Assembly (NCBI RefSeq): GCF_026151205.1
Contig: NC_087073.1
Coordinates: forward strand, 6,345,001-6,409,000
Direction: 5' to 3'
Length of the DNA: 64,000 bases
DNA from: Bolinopsis microptera
Lineage: Eukaryota; Ctenophora; Tentaculata; Lobata; Bolinopsidae
In this document: positions 294-52,689 of the stretch, piece after piece
Position numbering within the stretch: position 1 is the first letter of the stretch
How the letters are laid out: each line of letters opens with the position of its first letter
Position numbers and translations under genes: made by a program
Notes under the pieces: generated by a model
What the model saw: only the letters and a program-made list of their open reading frames with translations
Told to the model about the DNA's origin: nothing
Database searches by the model: none

Positions 294-4689
<4,396 letters not shown>

Positions 4690-6830: not shown

Positions 6831-8371
6831 TGTACAGGGGGGGGGCCAAAAGTCAGTACCCATACGTTGGCATTAATAGCTCGGTCACTGAGTGCCCAAT
6901 TGAAATAATTCTTTCTGGTATGACTTATTACCACCACTGGTTCGAGGAATTTGTCAAATCGAAAAATATTCCTGTTAATTTTTTTCAAATGAAGGTTCAT
7001 TTTCGCATTTATTTGAAAGTTTGGATAGTCGAATCAAGCCAAATATTATTGAATGGTGTTTGGTCATTTAAATTACATTTGTCCTGAAAAAAAGAGAGTT
7101 CTAGCTTTTCAGATGACTGAGATATGAAGCATAACGAGTTTGTTCATTACATGTGATCAGGTGATTAGGTTGAGAAAAGACAGTTTTTTTTGTTTTGAGA
7201 AAAGACAATTTTATTATCTATCACCAGTTCAATACACGATCAATAAATATACATCCGAATCAGTGGCGTAACTTAGGGCCCCGCAGACCCCGCTGTGCGG
7301 GGGGGCGCCGTATAAGGGGGGCGCAATTTTCCTGAATTTTAGGCCCTTTCACTGAAAAAACGCTTTGTTTGTGTATTTCCCTGTCCAATTTAGCGTTCGG
7401 CCGACGCGAAAAAAATATTTGGGGTACCCTTTTTTTGCTTCAGGGGGCGCAAAAAGCTGTAGGGGGGTGAGAAAAAAAGTACCCGACCTTTTTTTTTTTT
7501 TTTTTTTTTTTTTAGGGACAAAAAATTTTAGGGGGGCGCTTTTCGTCACTGAGCGGGGGGCGCCAACAAGCAAAGTTTCGCCACTGATCCGAATAAACTT
7601 GATTTAAAAGAAAATGATACAAGTATGCTAGCAGCTAGCGTGCTTGTATTTAATCAATATACACGCTGTTAAAAAGGGTCTGACCACCAACCACACCGCC
7701 ACTCACATTAGCACAGCTGGTGAAAGGACCCAGGCGCTATTAAAAGCTTTTATGAGCCCTGGTTGACTGCTGAGAGTGGCGACAGGTCTGACATTAATTT
7801 TGCATTAGTTTTTCTTATATTCCAGTAAAATTTAAGTTTTGAGTTATATGATTGTCATGCGATATTTAAGTCACAGCTGCTCGCAATACATTATTGCTTA
7901 TAAAATTGTTAAATATGCTCGCTATATACTTAACTTTTAGATACCGCATGTACATATTAAGGCTATTGAGGCTAGATCCGCATTATTGGAATTGTGCAGA
8001 GAGCCAATTACGGTGTTGTAATTGGGTAATCATTGAGTACCCTATCAATTTTGCTAACGAGATAAACAAATTGCTTGATAACTTCGTCATTTTAAATCCG
8101 TTTCGCACCATCTTTTCATATTATATTTCAGATTAAATGACCTATTGCAATATGTTACAACGGAGTCTCTAACATGTTCACAAACACGAGTATAAGCAAT
8201 TCAATGTTCATTGGGTGTGGCCCCCAAAAATCGAATTTTCAAATTTTGGTGACGGAATCCTCGAACAAGTAGGTACAGTATGCCATCTGGAAAGCAACAA
8301 CTCTCAAATATAAAACAGGGCGGTGGTAAAAGACCCAACGTATGGGTACTGACTTTTGCCCCCCCTGTACA
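6831..8371. mobile_element. Non-autonomous DNA transposon with about 38-bp inverted ends
   Basis: The left end at 6831-6871 (TGTACAGGGGGGGGGCC, then AAAAGTCAGTACCCATACGT) is the reverse complement of the right end at 8334-8371. Between them are 1.5 kb without a transposase-like frame, including a nested MITE at 7261-7586. The right part (about 7938-8200 and 8346-8371) recurs at 40407-40603, which shows the sequence is dispersed. No clear target duplication was found, so the copy is old or the borders are slightly different. Confidence 0.6.
7261..7586. mobile_element. hAT-like MITE, 326 bp, nested
   Basis: The termini CAGTGGCGTAACTT and AAGTTTCGCCACTG form a 14-bp inverted repeat with one mismatch. 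They are flanked by a perfect 8-bp target duplication ATCCGAAT (7253-7260 and 7587-7594). The CAGTGGCG terminus and 8-bp duplication are typical of hAT superfamily MITEs. No coding capacity. A second copy of the same family, about 327 bp, lies at 48369-48695. It sits inside the larger inverted-end element around it, so it inserted later. Confidence 0.88.
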
Positions 8372-14700: not shown

Positions 14701-17700
14701 GTGTTAGTGGTGTTAGTGGTGTTAGTGGTGTTAGTGGTGTTAGTGGTGTTAGTGATGTTAGTAGTGTTAGTGATGTTAGTAGTGTTAGTGGTGTTAGTAG
14801 TGTTAGTGGTGTTATTAGTGTATTCTGTTAGTGGTGTTAGTTTGATGTCTGGAGAGTGGTTTATCAAGGTGGCGGGGAGGATGTTGTTAAACTGTAGCTA
14901 TGTCAACAGTTAGTCGTCACAGAAAGAGAGAAAAAGGGGTTCTGGCTCTACTCTGCTCCAAACAGACAGCTGAAGTGTGAGTGGTTACAATGTGTTGACT
15001 GTTGCTATGGTAACCACGTGACATGTTAAGAATGCAGAGTGTCAACACCCCCAGTTTAAATGTTTCGAGTGGTGAAATTTCTACGACTTGACTCCAGACA
15101 ATGGTGCAGTCTGTTTAAATCTGCCAGTTTCACGGCTTCGTTCACCCAGCTTGCAGTTACCCCACCATGGCAGCAAGTTAGAGAACATGGCAAATGTTAC
15201 AGCGGGAAACTAATCGTTGCGCGGAAAAATCAGGTCCAGCCTAAAGTTTGGAACCGAACGTTTAAAGCCTGATATTCTTAAACACCGTGTACTGTGTAGT
15301 CAACAGTCAAAAAGTGTTTGTTTATTGAAGGTAAATAGGGAAAATATAACGAGTCTGAAGACATAGAAGCTTTGTGCAGCGAACAAAGAACTGACAATAG
15401 TTAGATTCTCTGTTCGTGATAATATTTCGAAAGTCTCGCCACCCCAGACAATTAGTCATGAAGTTATGGACCACCTTACTAACTTTTTCACGGTTGCCGG
15501 TTCCGTGGTATTTGGCAAAGGTTTTTTTGAGTGGATGCCAATTTTACAGAAGTTCTGCAGCAAAATCACGTTTGCAATTTCAACACCGATGAGGATCGTT
15601 TTTAGAATGGGGTGGCATTGAAAAAAAGCGGGACATGATTTTTAAAATCACTAAGTTCCACAAATTCTCGGTAGAAAGCAGCCCGAAAACTTCCCACTAG
15701 TATTTTTACTGAGCTCACGAGGAAAACTTGCTAAATTCCTTTGCCTGAACCCTAAATTCTATTTATCATACCATGATAAATGAATAATCGAATAAATCTA
15801 TGATATATTTTCGTAAAATTAGCATGCGTTATTTGTCCCCCGCATACCCACGGCACCAGGCATCCTACCGGTGAGCACTCCTCAAAATAACCATGTTACT
15901 AGGGTTACTATTCCGTTACTAACCATAGCAAATGCAATGTGGCGGGTTTTAAGGTGTTTGTAGGGGTTGGAATAGTGGATAATCGTGACCATCCTCTCCA
16001 CGCTGATCACTGTTAGTGTGAAGACTGACAACTCGCTGCTAAACGTCACCATGAACCCTGCAATCTGGAGATTGGGACACTGGTTAGTGGGGATATGGAA
16101 ATTGGGACACTGGTTAGTGGGGATATTGAGATAGGGACACTGGTTAGTGGGGATATAATCCTGCAATCTGGAGATTGGGACACTGGTTAGTGGGGATATA
16201 ATCCTGCAATCTGGAGGTGGGACACTGGTTAGTGGGGATATAATCCTGCAATCTGGAGGTGGGACACTGGTTAGTGGGGATATAATCCTGCAATCTGGAG
16301 ATTGGGACACTGGTTAGTGGGGATATAATCCTGCAATCTGGAGATTGGGACACTGGTTAGTGGGGATATAATCCTGCAATCTGGAGATTGGGACACTGGT
16401 TAGTGGGGATATTAAGATTGGGACACTGGTTAGTGGGGATATTGAGATTGGGACACTGGTTAGTGGGGATATTGAGATTGGGACACTGGTTAGTGGGGAT
16501 CTAATCCTGCAATCTGGAGATTGGGACACTGGTTAGTGGGGATATAATCCTGCAATCTGGAGATTGGGACACTGGTTAGTGGGGATATAATCCTGCAATC
16601 TGGAGATTGGGACACTGGTTAGTGGGGATATTAAGATTGGGACACTGGTTAGTGGGGATATTGAGATTGGGACACTGGTTAGTGGGGATATTGAGATAGG
16701 GACACTGGTTAGTGGGGATATTGAGATAGGGACACTGGTTAGTGGGGATATAATCCTGCAATCTGGAGATTGGGACACTGGTTAGTGGGGATATAATCCT
16801 GCAATCTGGAGATTGGGACACTGGTTAGTGGGGATATAATCCTGCAATCTGGAGATTGGGACACTGGTTAGTGGGGATATTAAGATTGGGACACTGGTTA
16901 GTGGGGATATTGAGATTGGGACACTGGTTAGTGGGGATATTGAGATTGGGACACTGGTTAGTGGGGATCTAATCCTGCAATCCGGAGATTGGGACACTGG
17001 TTAGTGGCGATGTGGAGATTGGGACACTGGTTAGTGGGGATATAATCCTGCAATCTGGAGATTGGGACACTGGTTAGTGGGGATATGGAGATTGGGACAC
17101 TGGTTAGTGGGTATATAATCCTGCATTCTTGAGATTGGGACACTGGTTAGTGGGGATATGGAGATTGGGACACTGGTTAGTGGGGATATAATCCTGCAAT
17201 CTGGAGATTGGGACACTGGTTAGTGGGGATATGGAGATTGGGACACTGGTTAGTGGGGATATGGAGATTGGGACACTGGTTAGTGGGTATCTAATCCTGC
17301 AATCCGGAGATTGGGACACTGGTTAGTGGGGATATGGAGATTGGGACACTGGTTAGTGGGTATATAATCCTGCATTCTTGAGATTGGGACACTGGTTAGT
17401 GGGGATATGGAGATTGGGACACTGGTTAGTGGGGATATAATCCTGCAATCTGGAGATTGGGACACTGGTTAGTGGGGATATGGAGATTGGGACACTGGTT
17501 AGTGGGGATATGGAGATTGGGACACTGGTTAGTGGGTATCTAATCCTGCAATCCGGAGATTGGGACACTGGTTAGTGGGGATATGGAGATTGGGACACTG
17601 GTTAGTGGGGATCTAATCCTGCAATCTGGAGATTGGGACACTGGTTAGTGGGGATATTGAGATTGGGACACTGGTTAGTGGGGATATTGAGATTGGGACA

Positions 17701-18931
17701 CTGGTTAGTGGGGATATAATACTGGTTACTAAAAATTTGACTATGGACATTGTGGCTTGTGCATTGCAAAGTACTGCAGTACTGCAGTAACCATGGTTAC
17801 AGGGCAGGATTAATAAACTGATCACCCTGTGTTTCAAAACATTTACATAAGTTTTCTTTTCTTGTCGAGCAACTTGCCAAATACGTCACTTATTCAGAAG
17901 GGAGTTGCTTTAACCTCAAAAAGCCGACACACCTTAGCTACAAATTCTACAGAACCAGAGAATCAGGGGCCCTTTAGTATGGCCTAATTGCAAAGTTCTG
18001 ATTACTGGCTCCACCTTGTGTCTAGTGGCACTGCGTAATACCTCTGTCTCGCCACTCCAAACAGAGGGAGGGGTGATTCCCAGAGGACAAACATTACCTG
18101 GCCACTATTCAGGGTTTTCAGTGTTCATATATCATCAGTTTTAGCATTAAGGACAGGTGCTGAGTTACCACATTAACTACCACTACCGGACAACTTCATA
18201 ACTCAACTACAACCAACAAAACGTTAAAGTTTACCTTGCAGCCGGCTCCATTCTGCCAGTCCATAGCAAAGTCTTCGTAGAGACCATAGGTTTTAGCGTC
18301 CACAATAGCGAGCATCATAAGGTAAATACCAGTGAAGAGGTCCGAGAAGGAAAGGTTCATTATTAGGAACCGGGTTGGGGTAAACCTGAGGAAGGGAGGT
18401 TATAGCTTGTAAACTAAATCATGCTTAGACACGTGACAGAAACCGAGGTTATAGCATGCAGCATATGATCAAAACAATCTCCTTGTCATATATTACTCGT
18501 TAATTTACTTTGATTTAAACATCAAAAGGGTGGTTAAAAGATTAATTGTTCTAGAATAAGAAATTCAGGAACTAAGATAAACAAGAAGGTTAGGTTACCG
18601 ATGGTGAGACCCAAATCTGCTTGCGTAAAATGCTCCCAGCTATTTTAACGCTGATTTAATAAATTGATAATCGCGAAAATTCTATCGATCGTGATTCTGT
18701 CGCAAACCAGTATCACATTTCCCATTTTGTTCGCCAAAAAAATACATAGGTACTTGAAAATCCGATTTAAAATTATATTTACTTTTTAGTGGATAAGATG
18801 GTGATAGTAAAAAGAGTCAAGTTGCCCAGCACAGCCAAAGTGCAGACGATCCAAACACCCATCCTTAGTACCCAGTTCCCAATTAGGTCTTCACAGGGAT
18901 TAAACTCGTCGGGTTGCGGAGTGCAATGTAG
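11776..18931 (-). CDS. LGR exons 18-23: seven-transmembrane domain and C-tail
   Basis: Exon 18783-18931 holds the hinge end [11 protein letters not shown] and TM1 (VLGNL). Exon 18235-18385 has TM2 ([10 protein letters not shown]) and the extracellular cysteine GAGCK. Exon 15924-16064 has TM3 with ER in place of the DRY motif. Exon 14096-14188 carries TM4 and CLP, exon 12900-12989 TM5, and exon 11776-12330 TM6, TM7 (NPFLY for NPxxY) and a tail of about 95 residues rich in Ser/Thr. The tail ends in KLVL, a possible class II PDZ ligand. Five introns split the helical domain, unlike vertebrate gonadotropin receptors, where it is one exon. The TM3 acceptor was set at CTCCAG|ATTGCAGG because it alone keeps frame and spacing (GCKIAGFMV). 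Confidence 0.92.
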
Positions 18932-39305: not shown

Positions 39306-39629
39306 GACGTACCACGTACCACGTACCACGTACCACGTACCACGTACCACGTACCACGTACCACGTACCACGTACCACGTACCACGTACCACGTACCACG
39401 TACCACGTACCACGTACCACGTACCACGTACCACGTACCACGTACCACGTACCACGTACCACGTACCACGTACCACGTACCACGTACCACGTACCACGTA
39501 CCACGTACCACGTACCACGTACCACGTACCACGTACCACGTGCCACGTACCACGTGCCACGTACCACGTGCCACGTACCACGTGCCACGTACCACGTGCC
39601 ACGTACCACGTGCCACGTGCCACGTGGTA
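39306..39629. repeat. 7-bp satellite (ACCACGT)n with CACGTG variants at one end
   Basis: About 46 copies of a 7-bp unit. The right end (from about 39537) becomes a 14-bp alternation ACCACGT/GCCACGT, which creates eight CACGTG boxes. All frames on both strands are open for 100-170 codons, so long ORFs here are artefacts of the repeat. Confidence 0.97.
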
Positions 39630-40406: not shown

Positions 40407-40603
40407 CTAACGAGATAAACAAATTGCTTGATAACTTCGTAATTTTAAATCTGTTTCACACCATCTTTTCAGATTATATTCTGGATTGAATGACCTATTG
40501 CAATATGTTACAACGGAGTCTCTAACATTTTAATAAACACCAGTATAGGCAATTCAATGTTGATTGGGTACTGACTTTTGCCCCCCCCCCTCCCCCTGTA
40601 TAT
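40407..40603. repeat. Partial copy of the inverted-end element at 6831-8371
   Basis: GCTAACGAGATAAACAAATT through ACGGAGTCTCTAACAT is nearly identical to 8054-8175, and it ends in the same terminus GGGTACTGACTTTTGCC plus a C-run and CTGTA. The middle differs, indicating deletion relative to the 8-kb copy. Confidence 0.75.
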
Positions 40604-43185: not shown

Positions 43186-43371
43186 ATGACTATTCGCAAC
43201 ACTATAAAAAACCCTCTAATCTGATCGATCCCAACTCTAACCCTATAGGTACGTTAGGGTTATGTGGTTGCGAGAAGCATTATTTGATGCGCGCGCGACC
43301 CAGTAGTGCATCGCGCTACAAGGGTTAGGGTTAGGTTATAACCCAATACCTAACAAAATCATTTGTTGGAA

Positions 43372-43420
<49 letters not shown>

Positions 43421-43845
43421 GTAATGACTACCAATGGAGACTTCTTGGGGACTAATGGGACTAAAAATCGTGGGGACTAGAGGTCAACTCGTTGACGTAA
43501 TTCACCATTTGTCCCATAAGTCCCAGAATTTTTGACAGTTATTTATGGTTTTCAAGTTAGTTTAATAACGATACGATCGAGATGTTTTGTCCAAGATAAG
43601 AGTAGGATAAATCTGACTTAAAAGTAAAAGATAAGCCCGGTTGTAATGTGTTCTACCACTGTACAAGTCAGTTCAGATTGAGGTAAATTGAAGTTTAGCT
43701 CTCGTGAAGGTAGAAGTAGCCGACTCGCTGAACTCTTGAATCTTTTGACCCATCAGCATGGACATTATCGGGAAAATGATGATCGATTAGAATCTTACAG
43801 TTACCTCCTCCTTAGAATCTTACAGTTACTCCTCCCAGAGGGAGG

Positions 43846-46500
43846 AAGACTGAGGAGAAAGAGGAGGACTGAGGAGGACTGAGGAGGACTGAGGAGGAGG
43901 AGAAGGACCGAGGAGGACTGAGGAGGAGGAGGAATGAAGAGGAGAGGGAGGACTGAGGAAGAGGAGCAGGATTGGTGGGAAGGAGGAGGAAAACGAGAAG
44001 GAGGAGAAGGAGGAGGACTGAGACGGGAGGAGGAGGAGAAGGACTAAGGAGGAGGAGGACTGAGGAGGAGGATGAGGACTGATGAGGAGGAGGAGGACTG
44101 AGGAGGAGGAGGATAAGGAGGAGAATGAGGAGGAGGAGGAGGAAGACTCAGGAGGAGGACTCAGGAGGTGGAGGAGGATGAGGAGGACTCAGGAGGAGGA
44201 CTGAAGAGGAGGAGGAATGATGAGGAGGAGGAGGACTCAGGAGGAGGAGGAGGACTGAGGACGGGGAGGAGGAGGAGGACGAGAGCGAAGATGAGGAGGA
44301 GGAGGACTGAGGAGTAGGACTGATAAGAAGGAGAAGGAGGAGGAGGTGGAATGAGGAAGACTGAGGATGAGGAAAAGGAGAAGGAGGACTGGGGAAGAGG
44401 AGGACTTGGGGAGGACTGAGGAGGAGGACTGGGGTAGGACTGAGGAGGATGATGAGAAGGAGGACCGAGGATGAGGAGAAGGAGAAGGAGGACTGGGGGA
44501 GGACTGATGAGGAGGATGACTGGGGGAGGACTGGGGGAGGACTGAGGAGGAGGAGGACTTCGGAGTAGAAGGAGGAAAAGGAGGAGAAGGAGTAGAAGGA
44601 GGAGAAGGAGGAGAAGGAGGAGGAGGAGGAGGAGGAGGAGGACTGAAGATGAGGAGGAGGAATGATGAGGAGGAGGAGGACTCAGGAGGAGGAGGAGGAC
44701 TGAGGACGGGGAGGAGGAGGAGGAGGACTAAGGACGAGGAGGACTGAGGAGGAGGACGAGAGCGAAGATGAGGAGGAGGAGGACTGAGGAGGAGGACTGA
44801 GGAAGAGGACTGATAAGAAGGAGAAGGAGGAGGAGGTGGAATGAGGAAGAAGACTGAGGATGAGGAAAATGAGAAGGAGGACTGGGGAAGAGGAGGACTT
44901 GGGGAGGGACTGAGGAGGAGGACTGGGGTAGGACTGAGGAGGATGATGAGGAGGAGGATGATGAGGAGGAGGACCGAGGATGAGGAGAAGGAGGACTGGG
45001 GGAGGACTGATGAGGAGGAGGACTGGGGGAGGACTGATGCAGATGAGGAGGAGAACTGGGGGAGGACTGAGGAGGAGGAGGACTTCGGAGTAGAAGGAGG
45101 AAAAGGAGGAGAAGGAGGAGAAGGAGGAGAAGGAGGAGAAGGAGGAGAAGGAGGAGGAGGAGGAGGAGGAGGACTGACGAGGAGGAGAAGGACTGAGGAG
45201 GAGGAGGAGGATGAGGAGGAGGAGGACTGACGAGTAGGAGGAGGACTGGGGACTGAGGAGGAGGACTGAGGAGGAAGAGGATGAGGACTGAGGAAGAGGA
45301 CTAGGGAGGATGAGGAGGAGGAGGACTGAGGATGAGGACTAAGGAGGAGGAGGAGGAGGCTGAGGAGGAGGGGGACTGAGGAGGAGGAGGACTGATGAGG
45401 AGGAGAAGGAGGATCAGGAGGAGGACTGAGGAGGAAGAATGAAGAGGATGAGGACGAGGATTAAGGACGAGGATTAGGAGGATGATAACGAGGACTAAGG
45501 AAGAGGACTGATCAGGAGGAGAAAGAAGAGGAGAAGGAGGAGAAGGAAGAGGAGGATAAGGAGGAGATTGAGGAGGAAGAAGAGGAGTATGACTCAGGAG
45601 GAGGACTAAGGAGGTGGAGGAGGATGAGGAGGAGAACTCAGGAGGATGACTGAAGAGGAGGAGGAGGACTGACGAGGAGGAGGAGGAGGACTCAGGTGAA
45701 GGAAGAGGAAGAGGACTAAGGACGAGGACGAGCATGACTAGTGGAGGACTGAGGATGAGGACTGATGAGGAGGAGAAGGAGGAGGACTTAGGAGTAGGAG
45801 AAGGAGGATGAGGAGGAGGAGACTGAGGAGGAGGAGACTGAGGAGGAGGAGGAGACTGAGGAGGAGGAGGAGGACTGTTGAGGAGGAGGAGGATGATGAG
45901 GATCAGGACTGAGGAGGACTGAGAAGGAAGACTGAGGAGGACGAGGAAGAGGACTAAGGACGAGGAGGAGGACGACTGAAGAGGAGGAATGATTAGGAGG
46001 ACAAGAAAGAGGAGAAGGAGGAAGAGGATGAGGAGGAGGAGGAGAACAAGGAGAATGAGGAGGAGGACTGGGGGAGGACTAAGGACGAGGATGAGGACGA
46101 GGACGATTATGAGGAGGACAGAGGATGAGGACTGATGAGGAGGAGGAGAAGGAGGAGGAGGACTGGGGAGGATGACTCAGGAGGAGGATGAGGAGGACTC
46201 AGGAGGAGGACGACTATGAGGAGGACTGAGGAGAACTGATGGGGAGGAGAAGGAGGAGGAGGATGAGAAATGAGGATGAGGAGGAGGAGGAGGAGGAGAA
46301 GGACTGGGAGTAGGACTGAGGAGGAGGGGACTGAGGAGGAGGGTGAGGAGGACTGAGGAGAAGGACGAGGAGGAGGACGAAGAGCCAGGAAGAGGACTGA
46401 AGAGGACTCAGGAGGAGAAGGACTCAGGAGGAGGAAAACTTAGGAGGAGATGGAAGAGAACTGATGAGAAGGAGGAGGAAGACTAGGGAGGAGGAGGACA
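43846..46500. repeat. 2.65-kb polypurine GAGGAG-type low-complexity tract
   Basis: Almost uninterrupted G and A on the plus strand, made of GAG, GAGGAGGACTGAG and AAGGAGGAG variants with scattered T and C. Some longer blocks recur (for example around 44220-44450 and 44660-44930). Open frames in it encode only Glu/Asp/Gly/Arg repeats (plus) or Ser/Leu/Pro (minus) and are not genes. Such tracts can form triplex (H-DNA). Confidence 0.97.
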
Positions 46501-46659
46501 TCTAAATGTTTTGTCTGTTTTTGTCCGTTTTTGTCCGCCCTACCTTTTGTCCGTTTTGAAAATAAAGGGTACCGAACGGACACAAAACATGATCCCCCAG
46601 CCAAGCATGTGTTACAATACAAATGTAATTGACTATACATTTAAGGTGCAGTGTACTAG

Positions 46660-47063
46660 GGGGGGGGGGAGCCAGTGGATATTAGTAGATATTTGTAGAT
46701 TAATGTAGAATGGATAATCCACGAAAAAAGTGGATGACATTCTACAAATTTAGACATTTATCTCCAACAATTCAGTAGAATTTCTGGGCACATATTTGAT
46801 ATTACATTTTTTGTAGATAAAATAATGTAGATATTTGTAGATTATTGTCAATGGATGATTCACGAAAATTCTACAAATTCTACAAATTTATACATTTATT
46901 TCCAAAAATTCAGTAGAATTTCTGGGCACATATTTGAGATATACATTTTTTGTAGATAAAATGTAGATATATTGTAGATTATTGTAATGGATAATTCACG
47001 AAAAAAGTGGATGACATTATCCAAATATCTACAAATATCCGGCTTGGCTCCACCCCCCTCCCC
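46660..47063. mobile_element. MITE, 404 bp, G-rich inverted ends, 8-bp target duplication
   Basis: Flanked by TGTACTAG at 46652-46659 and 47064-47071. The left end is G10 AGCCAGTGGATATT; the right end, inverted, is GGGGAGGGGGGTGGAGCC...GGATATT. Internally a block of about 165 bp (AGATATTTGTAGATTA to CAGTAGAATTTCTGGGC and ATTTTTTGTAGATAAAA) is tandemly repeated. No coding sequence. It sits inside the 4.7-kb insertion. Confidence 0.82.
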
Positions 47064-47191
47064 TGTACTAGTGATATTATGGTATGTTTAAAGACCGGAC
47101 CACAAAATATAACCCGGTACCTAGTGTTGTACTAATACATAATAACAGTAACAGGGATAAAATTAATGAGCAGAAACAATCGATCTCACGT

Positions 47192-47331
47192 CAAGAGGCC
47201 GAAGCAATCGGGTCTGGGAGTACATGACAACTCCGACTAGTAGTGAGCATACTAGCCTCTGCAAGAGGCCGAAGCAATCGGGTCTGGGAGTACATGACAA
47301 CTCCGACTAGTAGTGAGCATACTAGCCTCTG
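47192..47331. repeat. Exact 70-bp tandem duplication
   Basis: The segment starting CAAGAGGCCGAAGCAATCGG and ending ACTAGCCTCTG occurs twice with no visible difference. Confidence 0.95.
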
Positions 47332-48076
47332 CAGTGGAAAAACACATAAAACATAACAACATAGCATATGTAGGGGTTCTGGTTGAATTATAACACTTCT
47401 GAGAGGTTTTAGGGCTTATGGTAGTCGGGAGATCGATTCTGTAAATTTCTCAATTTTCCGATTTTTCCGATTCCGATTTTGGCCTCATCAACCCTCATAT
47501 CGGAAATCGGGTTGGACCCCCCCCCCTCCTTGCACGATGCACAGGTCTCTAGAGTAACGGTACTGCACCACCTGACAGGGCTTTCCAATATCCTTTTTGT
47601 GAATATTTCCATAAATGATCGTCAAAAAACAAAAGAAACCAACGCCAATTTCAAATTACTGAGCATATCATTTCAGACAAATCAATACAAAAGTAATAAG
47701 AAAAATTGATAATGCGTTTATTTTCCTTGCGCTACAACTCGTGTTACTAGATCAATCTGATAAAATAAGCGTATATATGCAATGTTCTCCTCAATGTTGT
47801 CATTGGTAGTCGCCCCCGCCCCCTCCCTTAATTTACCTGAGGTACTCTAACAGCCCTCAAGTAGCTCCCAAGAAGTCAGGAATGTCCAGTGACCATTTAT
47901 AAATATTTTAGACTTCAGTCTTGAGAAGTTTACGATCTGGTCTGGAAAAGCCAGATTTTTTGAAATCTAAATGGGGACTAATGGAGACTTTTGGGGACTA
48001 ATGGGGACTAAAAATCATGGGGACTCGGGGTAAAATCGTTGACGTAATTCCCAAAGTCCCCAAAAGTAGTCATTAC

Positions 48077-48108
<32 letters not shown>

Positions 48109-48368
48109 TTGGAACCCTAACCTTAACGAGAAATTAGACCAACTTCCTTATATCATGGTCATATCGCGTGAATATCGAAACAGTTTTTTTGCCAATATCT
48201 CGCCAGGGGAGCATTTTAACCCTATTATGTCAATGTCATGGTAGATGATTCGGAATCAGCGTCCGAAAATACATCGATTCAGGTTGGTTTCAACTGTCGG
48301 GAGCCCAATTTTAAAACAATGGCGGGTCTGAGCCACCATCATAAATGAATATTTAATGGGCATCGCCG

Positions 48369-48695
48369 CAGTGGCGTAACTTAGGGCCCCGCAGACCCCG
48401 CTGTGCGGGGGGCGCCGTATAAGGGGGGCGCAATTTTCCTGAATTTTAGGCCCTTTCACTGAAAAAACGCCTTGTTTGTGTATTTCCCTGTCCAATTTAG
48501 CGTTCGGTCGACGTGAAAAAAATATTTGGGGTACCCTATTTTGCTTCAGGGGCGCAAAAAGTTGTAGGGGGGGGGGGGGGGGGCGAGAAAAAAAGTACCC
48601 GACCTTTTTTTTTTTTTTTTAGGGACACAAAAAATTTTGGGGGGCGCTTTTCGTCACTGAGCGGGGGGGCGCCAACAGGCAAAGTTACGCCACTG
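48369..48695. mobile_element. hAT-like MITE, 327 bp, second copy
   Basis: Perfect 14-bp inverted ends CAGTGGCGTAACTT / AAGTTACGCCACTG and about 95 percent similarity by eye to the copy at 7261-7586. It interrupts the repeat unit GGGCATCG...AATCC, whose uninterrupted form is at about 49203. The flanks show a duplicated GGCATCG, but three extra bases (CCG) stand between it and the left end, so the target duplication is imperfect. Confidence 0.87.
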
Positions 48696-48921
48696 GGCAT
48701 CGGAATCCAAATAAATTTAAAATTAACATTAATTTAGAATTTGAAAAGAACATCGTACAGCTACTTGTTATAGTTTCATGCAGTTACGAATGGAAACATG
48801 CGCTATAACTATAAGTATATCATTTACTGTAAGGAACAGGAACTTGCTCAATCTCAGGAACAGCAGTGAGTTAGGAGTGGAATGATGCTCTATACCATTA
48901 TCATTTCCACGTTTAGAAATT

Positions 48922-49412
48922 TTATAACCCAATACCTAACAAAATCATTTGTTGGAACCCTAATATAACCTTAACGAGAAATTAGACCAACTTCCTTATA
49001 TCATGGTCATATCGCGTAAATATCGAGACAGTTTTTTTGCCAATATCTCGCCAGGGGAGCATTTTAACCCTATGTCAATGTCATGGTAGATGATTCGGAA
49101 TCAGTGTCCGAAAATACATCGATTCAGGTTGGTTTCAACTGTTGGGAGCCCAATTTTAAAACAATGGCGGGTCTGAGCCACCATCATAAATGAATATTGA
49201 ATGGGCATCGAAATCCGAATAAATTTAAAATTAACATTAATTTAGAATTTGAAAAGAACATCGTACAGCTACTTGTTATAGTTTCATGCAGTTACGAATG
49301 GAAACATGCGCTATATCATTTACTGTAAGGAACAGGAACTTGCTCAATCTCAGGAACACAGTGAGTTAGGAGTGGAATGATGCTCTATACCATTATCATT
49401 TCCACGTTTAGA
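48922..49412. repeat. Second copy of a tandem duplication; empty site for two insertions
   Basis: This block repeats 43336-43372 joined to 48108-48918, without the 4.7-kb insertion and without the hAT-like MITE. Shared landmarks are TTATAACCCAATACCTAACA, CGAGAAATTAGACCAACTTC, GGCGGGTCTGAGCCACCATC and CATTTCCACGTTTAGAA. A more divergent relative is at 58660-58960. Confidence 0.9.
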
Positions 49413-49618: not shown

Positions 49619-52446
49619 TTTTTTTGAAGGTACCGCTCCCAACGGTCAAAGTGTAAAATTATTATATACAATACAATTTGAAAATATAAAGATAATATCA
49701 ACACATATTACTAGTCCATCCTGGTATGAGGTTGATGTCGCTGTTCGTGTCGTCGCACCATTGGACTGCTCTTCCTCTGTGTCCTCGGATGGCGGCGAGG
49801 GTTGTGCGGAGGATTGAGAAGCGGAGTTTTCGGCGTATGTGAGAAATCGTATCACTATAGGGTGTTCCCCTTTTGTTTGATATGAGTGTTGCGATTCTCT
49901 TATGGAAAGCTTCAGCCTCTTTCCCCATGCTTCCGCTAGTGGAGAAAACGAGGGGTGTAAATGTGCTTTTCTCCACTTCCAGGACCCGGCTGTTATATGT
50001 TCGTTTCTTTTCAGCCTCGTGTTTCTGAAACACTTTGTCAATGGGCCCACTGTTGCTTTTATTCCCGTCATGAAAGACTCGAACGTCGAAAAACGTCTTG
50101 TCCACGGTGTTCCAGACCCCCCTTGCCGTGATGTCCAGCCTTGCATCTGGTCGGGTGTTAGTCGTTTTGAGTTTGAAGGTTTCTCCTGTAAGAGGTAGCA
50201 ATTTTGGTTCTGTCCGAACGTCTTTGCATACCTCTTCCAGGAGACTGGCTTCTAGGTCGCGGATCTGGTTGTGCCGCATATCCCTGTAACCTCCCATAGC
50301 ACAGGATAGTGCATGGTCTATGGTGTTCGCTTTAGAGCATGCACATATCTGCGGTCTGTCTCTGATTGGGTGTTTATATCTCATCAGGACGGCGTCGGAA
50401 AATTCCTGCTTTGATAACGTATAGTGGAATTCCTCCAGCGGTAAAGCGGTAAGCCATGACGATGCTCCTTTCTGGCAGAGAATGTCCAGGTTTCTGCTGG
50501 TGTCGTCAGTACATTTTGCTTTAATAGAGGCCAACTTGTACTTATTGTAGAGGGTTTTCTCACTAGAAATGCCATTTTTCGCATGTTTGATCTTTTGGTT
50601 CATTTCATGGGTTTCCTCAGGGGAGAGTGTGAGTTTCTGGTTTAAGATAGCCTCAGTGAGAGGTTGTGTGGCTTTCCTGGAGAGGCTATATTCTAATGGG
50701 CACATTTCCACGGGATTGGATACAGCTAGGCCTCCGAATCTTGTGGGTAGGCTGTAAATGTCCCTATCTGTGTCCGTGAAAGCATGGTTTCCAACTATTA
50801 TTGGTAGAAAACTTGAGCGAATACATGCCTCCAGTGGGGCGAACAGGTCGGCTATATTTGGTATTGTCCTCATCACGTATGTCCACCTCTTGCTGAGTCC
50901 AGTGATATACGCTGAGTACGCCAGCTGGGGTTCGGTTAGTGCGATCTTGCATAACTCCTCAAGCTCTGTGACCCATTTTGCCACCTTACCTTGTACATAT
51001 TGCTTGATAAATGACTGTGTCCCTATGGCAGCGCCGAGGTATCTCTGCCCTCCTGATTTATCCCCAGTTCCCTCCTGAGTAATCTGGATTCCTGTCCCAT
51101 CAAATAGCTCTCGTGCCTTGTCTAGGTGTTCTTGTTTGACAACTAACCATGTCTTTGTGGCATTTGGGAAGTATCCTATGGGAGGTCCAATTATCAGAAG
51201 TTTGTCCCACCAGGCTTTGAGTGACTCCAAGTAGCCGCCAGCTCCTCCGTCGTCGGCGTACCAGATATTCTTACAGCCGACGATGAGTGACAACTCTTGT
51301 AGAAGCATGAGAGTGGAAATGGAATAAAAACCGGATGCACAGTTGTCACCTTGTGTTGTTCCTTCTTTAGATAATAAGTGATTGCCATCGGGGAGGAATA
51401 GTTTCGATGGGTTTCTGTAGGTGTTAATTAGGTACGTGGCGAATTCGGGGCAGGTGTGTCTGATGTTGTGCAGTGCTGTCTGGCGATTGAGGCTGTTAAA
51501 CGCGTTCGTTGCGTCCACCAGTAGGACTCCCTGGCAGTCGTCTTCAGCAAATATGTCGGACATTGCATGACAGGCGGCTTCGTATCCTCCCTCTTGACCC
51601 GCAGAAAGCTGTAGTGGCCCGACGGAGTTGATGATTTCGGGCTTCAGGAACATGACCACCGTTTTTCCCATTATTCGTCGCAAGACCTCACCAATACCTA
51701 TAGGACGAATGCCTGGGTTCTTATCGAGAGGTATAAGTCTACAGTTTAGCAAGGGTGCGATTGGCTGCGGGTCAACGTTCTCGGTGCAGAGCCTCCTACA
51801 TGCCCTGGCTATTGAATCACAAGCGTCTGAGGAGGATTTTCCGAACGACTTTGAGCACAATATCCTCCTCCAGGTGTCGCTGTCAAGGCCACTGGGCCCG
51901 CACGCTCCTTTCGTGATTTTTGCGGCTTTGTAGACCAGTTCGGCGTCGATGTTTTCGAAGATGACAGGTTCGACGATGGGCACCTTATCCTTTTTGAGTA
52001 CTCCAGTTGCTAGTGGGGCTGCGTCAGGATGTTTGGTTTTCAGTTTTTTGACAACTTCGGGACTGATTTCCAGGGGTTGTGAGTTGTTGTTTGTTATCCA
52101 TCTCAGAGCTGCCGCAACCTTGCCCTGTAGCATCAGTCGTGTGAAAACTTTGGCAACATGGGTTTGGTTCTTCTGCTGTGTGTTTTGGGGTATTCTCTTC
52201 TGTATAGCCTCACATTCCGACAAGAGCTTTTTGAACTTTCCTGCTTTCCATTTCTCCAAACGTTCTCCGAGGTATTTGATATGATCTCGATTTTTTGAGG
52301 TTTTCGAAGGTTTTTGGAGCATTGTTGCAGTAAATACGTTAAGAGCTAGAAATGATATTGATTCCATCGATGTTTTGTTGATCCAAAGGTCAAGCAGTCG
52401 AGTTATTTCTCCGATAAATGCTTTGCCGAGGGTACCTGATGGGATC
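49619..52446 (-). mobile_element. Non-LTR retrotransposon, 5'-truncated, with 14-bp target duplication
   Basis: TTCTAATAATAGAT flanks both sides (49605-49618 and 52447-52460). The left side begins with a T-run, i.e. a short poly-A tail of a minus-strand element. The right border cuts into an open frame, as expected from incomplete reverse transcription. Length 2828 bp. The 3' untranslated region is only about 80 bp. Borders and duplication are exact, so this copy is fairly recent. Confidence 0.92.
49698..52446 (-). CDS. Reverse transcriptase with C-terminal restriction-like endonuclease
   Basis: The first ATG is at 52367 (889 codons to the stop), but the frame stays open to the element border and reads PSGTLGKAFIGEITRLLDLW there, so the true protein was longer. 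RT motifs: LNCRLIPLDKNPGIRPIGIG, motif A VDATNAFNSLNR, motif B EGTTQGDNCASG, motif C WYADDGG. The C-terminal part has CACSK...HALSCAMGG...RHN, a Cys/His finger, followed by a PD-(D/E)XK-like core RPDARLDI...FFDVRVF. RT plus finger plus restriction-like nuclease is the plan of early-branching site-specific non-LTR elements (R2, NeSL, CRE, Hero-like). No stop or frameshift. Exact clade uncertain. Confidence 0.87.
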
Positions 52447-52689
52447 TTCTAATAATAGATACTCCGTATAATATAGTCCTAGGGAGTTCCTATAATTGTC
52501 CCGCTACCTCCATGCTTTACGAAAAGCAAAGTTCTAAAATTCCATATGCTCTGTTTTCCTAGCCAAGACCATGGACATAAACTTAAAGGCTATATAAAAC
52601 GTTCAACGAAAATTATATACCCGATGCATTAACCGTTAACGGATGCAGTGGTTTAGCAGTTACTGGGAATGTCTCTCAAAACTCAGTAT

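What the first reader, a model, noticed from the sequence alone, without database searches (positions are those of the whole stretch)
43373..48107. 4.7-kb insertion with homopolymer G/C ends, 8-bp target duplication and a preserved empty site
The left end is 47 G then AGTAATGACTAC, the right end GTAGTCATTACA then 30 C; both sides carry GTTGGAAC. The same target, uninterrupted, is at 48922-48990, so the insertion is proven by comparison within the window. A mobile unit whose outermost bases are long homopolymers and whose cargo is 2.65 kb of polypurine does not match a family I know. The 404-bp MITE nested in it also has G-rich ends and an 8-bp duplication, which hints at a shared mobilising enzyme.
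Basis: partly seen in the sequence, partly recalled or inferred. Interest (0 to 1): 0.85.

Follow-up and report, generated by a model that had tools for sequence, protein, structure and literature searches.

The report
Jumping DNA with G-run ends
This is one copy of a recently active, gene-less jumping DNA family whose outermost bases are runs of about 7 to 52 Gs that keep changing length; other element families in the same genome share these odd ends, which matters because transposon ends are normally fixed in sequence.

Summary
43373-48107 is a DNA-transposon insertion: G47 + AGTAATGACTAC / GTAGTCATTACA + C30, GTTGGAAC on both sides, and an uninterrupted paralogue at 48922. It is one of many copies: 244 genome matches to G7-NN-AATGACTAC (control 1) and 82 to G7-N-GTAATGACTAC (control 0; overlapping sets). 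Of 31 paired-end rows, 19 have exact 8-bp duplications. Sizes: 53 bp, mostly 308-392 bp, up to 9.4 kb.

Caps (7-52 Gs) differ between duplicated copies of one insertion and vary as much in nested, non-terminal positions. So they are element sequence drifting by slippage, not assembly joins.

The polypurine block belongs to a second element nested in this one; the 404-bp MITE sits inside that. Several sequence-distinct families share G runs followed within 3 nt by CCAA/CCAG, and ~100-bp end modules repeated in direct orientation; the window copy itself lacks CCAA at the cap.

The mobilising enzyme was not found: Merlin, Mutator-like and hAT genes exist in the genome, none as the family's own gene in the copies examined. 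Best call: new variant of a known kind, superfamily open.

The parts
43365..43372 (+). left copy of the 8-bp target duplication GTTGGAAC
   Evidence: paired-end test
43373..43419 (+). G47 terminal run (hypervariable left cap of family F1)
   Evidence: run lengths in copies
43420..43431 (+). short terminal inverted repeat AGTAATGACTAC
   Evidence: shared by copies
43423..43521 (+). left end module, partly palindromic, with ~10-bp units (TGGGGACTAA-like)
   Evidence: direct match to the right module over 100 columns, 82%, E 4.6e-22; 87% over 100 columns in L042
43787..43835 (+). F1 sequence next to the nested insertion: tandem duplication of a 24-25 bp unit ending ...TTACAGTTACTCCTCC
   Evidence: uninterrupted site ACTCCTCC|TTGCACG in L043
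43841..46498 (+). polypurine tandem array; part of nested family-5 element
   Evidence: lies upstream of the same right end in three contexts
46652..46659 (+). left copy of TGTACTAG, target duplication of the nested MITE (last base shared with the G run)
46660..47063 (+). nested 404-bp G-ended MITE (family F2); 40 genome matches listed, itself included
47064..47071 (+). right copy of TGTACTAG
47331..47526 (+). right end region of nested family-5 element, ...CGGAAATCGGGTTGGA + C10
   Evidence: BLAST to L039-L041, L045-L048, L050; three flank contexts
47970..48067 (+). right end module, direct copy of the left module
48066..48077 (+). right short terminal inverted repeat GTAGTCATTACA
48078..48107 (+). 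C30 terminal run (right cap)
48108..48115 (+). right copy of GTTGGAAC
48922..49210 (+). paralogous empty target site, single GTTGGAAC
6837..8365 (+). separate G-capped element in the window (family F8): G9 CCAAAAGTCAGTACCC ... C7, flanks share TGTACA

Best explanation
43373-48107 is a non-autonomous, cut-and-paste-type DNA transposon (family F1) with G-run caps, moved in trans by a DDE transposase made elsewhere in the genome. Shown: multicopy; short inverted ends; 8-bp target duplications at different sites; low divergence (recent activity); composites with nested elements present at different sites, so moved as units. Inferred: the transposase binds the ~10-bp units of the end modules and the AATGACTAC motif, needs a short G run (about 7) at the edge, and cuts at or near the run/flank border. 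The run then lengthens and shortens by replication slippage. The enzyme is unidentified. The terminal GG and 8-bp duplication fit Merlin best, Mutator-like next.
For: Copies. Duplications: 31 paired-end rows, 19 exactly 8 bp. Run change without transposition: one insertion in duplicated flanks (99-99.5% over 400 bp) has G16, G25, G24; another G23 and G15 at 99.25%. Nested, non-terminal runs vary equally in L046/L047/L048: F5 right end 14/25/36, F6 right 11/14/17, a further run 23/18/16, and the nested F4 caps are 21 against 23 and 24 against 32 in L045/L050. Composite movement: L045 and L050 share the nested F4 insertion but have different outer duplications; the nested F2 MITE also matches inside L039, L040 and L041, again with different outer duplications.
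Against: No autonomous copy was found, so trans-mobilisation is inferred. Run lengths come from one assembly; long G runs are error-prone in sequencing, so individual lengths are uncertain, though runs in many independent copies are not. Three right-type ends (L073, L077, L081) have at most 3 Gs at the cap, so a cap is not kept everywhere. Run length tracks divergence at right ends (rho 0.47, n=30 below 8%; 0.34 for all 43) but not at left ends, so the slippage history is not simple. One F1 copy (L077) shows no duplication, and four other rows need a mismatch, an offset or an interrupted run to fit 8 bp (by-eye reading).
Confidence: 0.9

Rival explanations
1. The family belongs to the Merlin superfamily and is moved by one of the Merlin-type (DDE_Tnp_IS1595) transposases encoded in this genome.
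For: Merlin is described as having terminal 5'-GG-3' and 8- or 9-bp duplications (PMC8101967, passages seen); F1 starts with G and has 8 bp. The genome has 58 Merlin-domain matches, several groups with equal scores and frame lengths; two were read (315 and 323 aa ORFs, L084 and L085; Pfam E 5.7e-13 and 1.9e-15).
Against: None of the 58 lies within 15 kb of 195 known F1 ends or inside 29 intervals between F1 ends; the end list is incomplete, since one search lists only 100 of 244. L084 and L085 show no G-run end or clear TIR within 2.3-2.5 kb. F1's exact inverted repeat is only ~10 bp beyond the run.
Confidence: 0.35
2. The family is a Mutator-like (MULE) non-autonomous derivative.
For: MULE duplications are 8-11 bp (PMC6446971, passages seen). 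A MULE in this genome (nested in L043) also begins GGG and has an 8-9 bp duplication (by eye). 88 MULE-domain matches in the genome.
Against: Of those 88, one lies inside the 29 intervals between F1 ends: the gene of that nested element with its own unrelated ends. A weaker match of the L043 protein (C5:12691917) lies between the ends of a duplicated-arm repeat, not of one F1 copy. No similarity of ends seen.
Confidence: 0.25
3. The G/C runs are added anew at each transposition (untemplated addition or end processing) rather than inherited and drifting.
For: Caps vary widely even among ends identical to consensus and do not correlate between the two ends of one copy (rho -0.08, n=27).
Against: Caps change in duplicated copies of one insertion, and nested runs far from the outer cut sites vary just as much.
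Confidence: 0.12
4. Assembly artefact or join at the G and C runs.
For: Long homopolymers are common assembly breakpoints (general knowledge).
Against: Same ends in many copies with matching 8-bp flanks; an empty paralogue lacks the whole unit.
Confidence: 0.02

Closest known systems
MITEs and other non-autonomous TIR DNA transposons
   Same: Short inverted ends, fixed-length target duplications, mostly 308-392 bp (23 of the 37 adjacent end pairs in the first 100 places), multicopy and young
   Different: Outermost bases are a hypervariable G run; the longer end modules are repeated in direct, not inverted, orientation
Merlin superfamily (IS1595-like)
   Same: Terminal GG; 8-9 bp duplications (PMC8101967 passages); open frames in this genome; the same passages mention tandem repeats inside one Merlin family
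   Different: No Merlin match within 15 kb of 195 known F1 ends; very short exact inverted repeat
Mutator-like elements (MULEs), including Spectre with 8-bp duplications
   Same: 8-11 bp duplications (PMC6446971 passages); a G-starting MULE present in this genome (L043)
   Different: No cognate MULE gene found; MULE inverted repeats are commonly hundreds of bp (same passages)
Galileo/Foldback-type elements (P superfamily)
   Same: Ends with internal tandem repeats that expand and contract (PMC3573991 passages)
   Different: Galileo has long inverted repeats and 7-bp duplications; here direct-orientation modules, G caps, 8 bp; the P-domain search found nothing, but it rang in no control either

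Membership tests
Non-autonomous TIR DNA transposon / MITE | inverted termini in many dispersed copies | tested here: met
Non-autonomous TIR DNA transposon / MITE | fixed-length target duplication | tested here: met
   19 of 31 rows exactly 8 bp; most others explained by G/C absorption, an offset or 1 mismatch
Non-autonomous TIR DNA transposon / MITE | no own transposase | tested here: met
   up to six longest frames of each of 15 copies viewed; Pfam on L043 and L048 pieces; 0 of 58 Merlin, 0 of 148 hAT, 1 of 88 MULE matches (a nested element) inside 29 end intervals. Unknown enzymes, and copies not read, are not excluded
Merlin | terminal GG and 8-9 bp duplication | tested here: met
   definition from PMC8101967 passages
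Merlin | DDE_Tnp_IS1595 transposase between the ends | tested here: not met
   0 of 58 matches within 15 kb of 195 known ends or inside 29 intervals; end list incomplete
Merlin | inverted repeats of 24-462 bp | tested here: inconclusive
   about 10 bp exact plus variable G run; longer modules are direct
Mutator-like | 8-11 bp duplication | tested here: met
   definition
Mutator-like | MULE transposase between the ends as the element's own gene | tested here: not met
   1 of 88 matches inside 29 intervals, a nested MULE in L043
hAT | 8-bp duplication | tested here: met
hAT | hAT transposase between the ends | tested here: not met
   0 of 148 matches given (of 150 scored, 365 candidates) inside 29 intervals
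hAT | CA...TG termini (recalled) | tested here: not met
   termini are G runs
P superfamily | P-type transposase in the genome | tested here: inconclusive
   PF21787: no match, but nothing rang in the controls either
KDZ/Zisupton | KDZ transposase in the genome | tested here: inconclusive
   PF18758: no match; nothing rang in controls

The most novel reading that the evidence does not exclude
The G-capped elements of this genome (F1-F6, FX and F8, at least five of distinct sequence) form an unrecognised superfamily-level group of DNA transposons. Its marks would be a hypervariable terminal G run (about 7 or more), a CCAA/CCAG motif within 3 nt in most families, 8-bp target duplications (seen in F1-F4, with a mismatch in FX, not shown for F5, F6, F8), and ~100-bp partly palindromic modules placed in direct orientation at both ends (F1-F4, F6, FX; not F8; F5 untested), served by a transposase that tolerates a cut site at the edge of a run of varying length.
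Probability: 0.25. Interest if true: 0.8.

Novelty: new variant of a known kind. Interest (0 to 1): 0.6.

Why it matters
DDE transposases normally cut at an exact terminal base set by a fixed sequence. Here the last bases are a slippage-prone homopolymer of 7 to 52, yet duplications stay at 8 bp, so either the enzyme measures from an internal site or it finds the run/flank edge. That question is directly testable on this family. The appearance of the same cap and end architecture in families of different sequence suggests one enzyme system or strong convergence. The caps also change faster than substitutions, which makes them a possible short-term clock.

Tried and rejected
Cognate transposase in L043: the MULE gene first looked like the family's own. 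It lies in a nested element with its own G-starting ends and an 8-9 bp duplication (by eye), so it was rejected. Giant 14-27 kb elements suggested by seven widely spaced end pairs: the two ends of the one pair that was read (L066, L067) share the same flanks in inverted orientation, and L064 has that flank too, so these look like duplicated arms of a larger repeat carrying a divergent F1-like MITE; the other pairs were not read through. Merlin genes as partner: two copies read, no matching ends. P-like reading of the 124-aa frame in L048: an impression from recalled motifs; no Pfam or NCBIfam match, one irrelevant weak PDB match (E 0.28), and a poor predicted structure (mean pLDDT 45.8), so dropped and no fold search made. 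Single-strand DNA folding of the left end: z -1.86, weak. Run-length asymmetry (right longer than left): sign test p 0.12, Wilcoxon p 0.03, left as a hint. Species: 13 large contigs made me think of a ctenophore (recalled); a listing and passages of PMC12221973 did not settle it, and the species stays unknown. Rfam on the window: no match. Literature for G-run-ended transposons; only counts, titles and starts of abstracts seen, none in those lists described such ends (one search returned no paper); subscription papers and Repbase were not searchable, so this is not proof of absence.
Full report
OBSERVATION. A paralogous stretch from 48922 reads straight through one GTTGGAAC: 37 bp identical on the left, 263 alignment columns at 95% on the right. 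It is a diverged local duplicate, not an allele, but it shows the same target without the unit.

A FAMILY, NOT A SINGLE CASE. The window is G000:C2:6345001-6409000 of an unnamed 264.65 Mb assembly. With 200 bp of the left end, 76 matches were reported (only 40 of 187 candidates scored); with 228 bp of the right end, 49 (40 of 219 scored). The pattern GGGGGGGNNAATGACTAC has 125 + 119 matches against 1 + 0 for the reversed pattern, and GGGGGGGNGTAATGACTAC 45 + 37 against 0 + 0; the two sets overlap. Fifteen whole copies were fetched, 0.7 to 9.4 kb between caps; these were chosen because both ends had been found, so they lean to long copies. In the first 100 of the 244 places, 37 neighbouring end pairs face each other within 30 kb; 23 of them span 308-392 bp. 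One 53-bp element (G19, 24-bp core, C10) carries the duplication GTGGTGTT; a second, inverted one lies 1.9 kb away, so they may be one event.

TARGET DUPLICATIONS. Among 31 paired-end rows (one copy, L051, counted in both orientations), the longest flank match is exactly 8 bp in 19, 9 in 3, 10 in 1, 14 in 1 (inside a tandem repeat), 7 in 2 (both L051), none in 5. Longer matches can arise because a G or C of the duplication merges with the run. Of the five without an exact match, by eye four fit 8 bp with a mismatch, a one-base offset or an interrupted run (L064, L080, L037, L047); L077 does not. In 22 hand-picked cases position 1 is always a purine (G 16, A 6), but a C at that place is hidden by the run, and the dropped L036 could begin with C. 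In held DNA in general, 27 distinct flank pairs among 1359 G-run/C-run pairs match over 8 bp, 0 and 0 in two controls; a few of the 27 are second pairings of one F1 cap.

THE CAPS DRIFT. Over 86 distinct end rows (42 left-type, 44 right-type, including the divergent FX ends) runs are 7 to 52 long. Five rows read 0: one is an internal repeat of FX, one (L008) has a run behind a longer linker that the script missed, and three right-type ends (L073, L077, L081) have at most 3 Gs. None is 4-6 long. Loci L054-L083 were chosen with a G7 pattern; L001-L053 were not, and their shortest cap is also 7. Lengths at the two ends of one copy are uncorrelated (rho -0.08, n=27); right caps are longer (median 24 against 13; Wilcoxon p 0.03, sign test p 0.12). 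Three findings point to slippage. First, one insertion present in repeated host DNA (flanks 99-99.5% identical over 400 bp) has G16, G25 and G24; another has G23 and G15 at 99.25%; a third G13 and G11 at 99.5% over 385 bp. Megablast segments of over 90% identity between these copies have 0-2.1% mismatches (gaps apart); the remaining rows are array-to-array matches. Third, caps of ends identical to consensus over up to 150 bp range from 8 to 34 (left, 13 rows of 41) and 7 to 28 (right, 16 of 43). Divergence and run length correlate at right ends (rho 0.47, p 0.009, n=30 below 8%; rho 0.34, p 0.03 for all 43) but not at left ends. Single run lengths in one assembly are uncertain.

NESTING, AND THE POLYPURINE BLOCK. 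Of 15 whole copies, 10 contain purine-rich array of the tested kind and 5 do not. In L043 the F1 sequence reads ...ACTCCTCC|TTGCACG...; in the window, L039, L040 and L041 about 2.9-3.7 kb is inserted there, ending ...GGGTTGGA + C run. The same right end, with polypurine upstream, occurs in L045 before AGTTAAAT (inside a family-4 element) and in L046-L048 before GGTTTGTAC. So the array travels with a fifth element (F5); its left end was not found. The 404-bp MITE (F2, 46660-47063, TGTACTAG) sits inside F5. In the genome search with this MITE (40 matches listed, 40 of 178 candidates scored) the best matches after the window itself lie within L039, L040 and L041, which have other outer duplications; the inner flank CAGTGTACTA is the same in the window, L039 and the L040 locus (L011). 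L045 and L050 likewise share one nested F4 insertion with different outer duplications. So composites moved as units.

OTHER G-CAPPED FAMILIES. The scan gave two more families with exact 8-bp duplications: L048:2368-4955 (F3, TACCAATGGCATA, AGGAGGAC) and L045:1128-4616 (F4, TCCAACTAC, ATCTTTTG). F6 (CAACGCCCCAAAA; L046-L048) and F8 (window 6837-8365, CCAAAAGTCAGTACCC) have G caps too; by eye F8 flanks share only TGTACA and F6 flanks only TTGATA, so 8 bp is not shown for these two, nor for F5. Of 148 unique runs of 7 or more Gs in held DNA, 82 are F1-like; of the other 66, 21 have CCAA or CCAG within 3 nt, against 0 (outward), 0 (complement), 1 (before the run) and 10 (reversed motif, at least partly because AACC overlaps CCAACC) in controls. 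The 21 fall in few families, and held DNA was chosen around F1, so this is suggestive, not a genome-wide estimate. F1 ends of the CC type carry the motif; the window copy (AGT and TGT linkers) does not, which weighs against the motif as a general mark.

END ARCHITECTURE. Left and right ends match each other in direct orientation better than inverted in F1 (82% over 100 columns in the window; 87% in L042), F2 (91% over 85 and 82% over 90), F3 (97% over 114), F4 (92% over 64, though an inverted match of 69% over 137 is also strong), F6 (84% over 85) and FX (80% over 116). The modules match their own complement in F1, F3, F4 and F6, over only 30 bp in F2, and not in FX. F8 has only an inverted match. 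In F1 a 10-bp period was found by the tandem-repeat program at 47970-48011. Reading these units as transposase-binding sites is inference.

WHICH ENZYME. Genome searches: Merlin domain 58 matches, hAT 150 (150 of 365 candidates scored), MULE 88, P-type and KDZ none, though those two rang in no control either. None of the 58 Merlin matches lies within 15 kb of 195 known F1 ends. Inside 29 intervals over 2 kb between F1 ends (seven of them duplicated-arm pairs) lie 0 of 148 hAT, 0 of 58 Merlin and 1 of 88 MULE matches, the nested MULE of L043. The list of ends is incomplete (one search prints 100 of 244). Of 130 places (of 149) matched by the L043 MULE protein, 7 lie within 15 kb of an F1 end: the nested MULE itself, C5:12691917 inside a duplicated-arm interval, C1:12860951 4 kb outside another, and four 3.5-14.6 kb away; about 3 are expected by chance (my estimate). 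By passages of PMC8101967, Merlin has terminal GG and 8-9 bp duplications; MULEs have 8-11 bp (PMC6446971 passages). Both fit; neither is shown.

MECHANISM. Most likely a transposase supplied in trans binds the end modules and AATGACTAC and joins the outer edge of the G run to target DNA with an 8-bp stagger. Whether it cuts at the run edge or a fixed distance from the motif is open; the floor of 7 may be a requirement of the enzyme or simply the length below which slippage stops.

NOVELTY. F1 is a new family of a known kind, as far as could be checked here. The variable homopolymer termini shared by several families, and the direct end modules, were not found in the paper listings I searched (listings only), and I do not recall them; Repbase was not available.

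Noticed in passing
window 6837-8365 and 40581-40590: A second G-capped family (F8) with inverted repeats of about 23 bp; its copy at 6837 carries a nested CAGTGGCGTAAC...-ended (hAT-like, recalled) insertion at about 7264-7588 similar to one near 48370-48697 (by eye).
   Followed up: partly
L064, L066, L067 and seven end pairs that are 14-27 kb apart: A large repeat with inverted arms seems to carry a divergent F1-like MITE in each arm; MULE-like matches lie 3-4 kb from such ends at C1:12860951 and C5:12691917.
   Followed up: partly
L084, L085 (C11:745300-747800, C7:6919560-6921860): Merlin-type transposase frames (315 and 323 aa) sit beside short-period tandem repeats, without visible inverted ends within 2.5 kb; a further frame with zinc-knuckle-like cysteines (by eye) starts on the other side.
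   Followed up: partly
window 500-2635 and 49701-52448: Retroelement frames: GIY-YIG match in a 712-aa frame (Penelope-like by eye) and a reverse transcriptase match in a 916-aa frame.
   Followed up: no
L048:2761-3805 minus strand: Family F3 copy holds two frames (244 and 124 aa) with no match in Pfam or NCBIfam and no useful PDB match (one weak, E 0.28); could be a decayed transposase or a captured host gene.
   Followed up: partly
C10:12841065-12841106 and C10:12842989-12843030: Two minimal forms in inverted order, G-run + 24-bp near-palindrome + C-run; one was read (53 bp with caps, L086) and carries an 8-bp duplication: possibly the smallest mobilised form, or an internal deletion.
   Followed up: partly
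F1 ends: The bases between run and AATGACTAC vary (CC, C, T, AGT, TGT), as if the run overwrites neighbouring bases inward; right-hand duplications of F5 and F6 look overwritten by C in the same way.
   Followed up: no
window 39307-39625, 16068-17717: Long tandem arrays (7-bp ACGTACC, about 46 copies; 30/43-bp units) unrelated to the finding.
   Followed up: no
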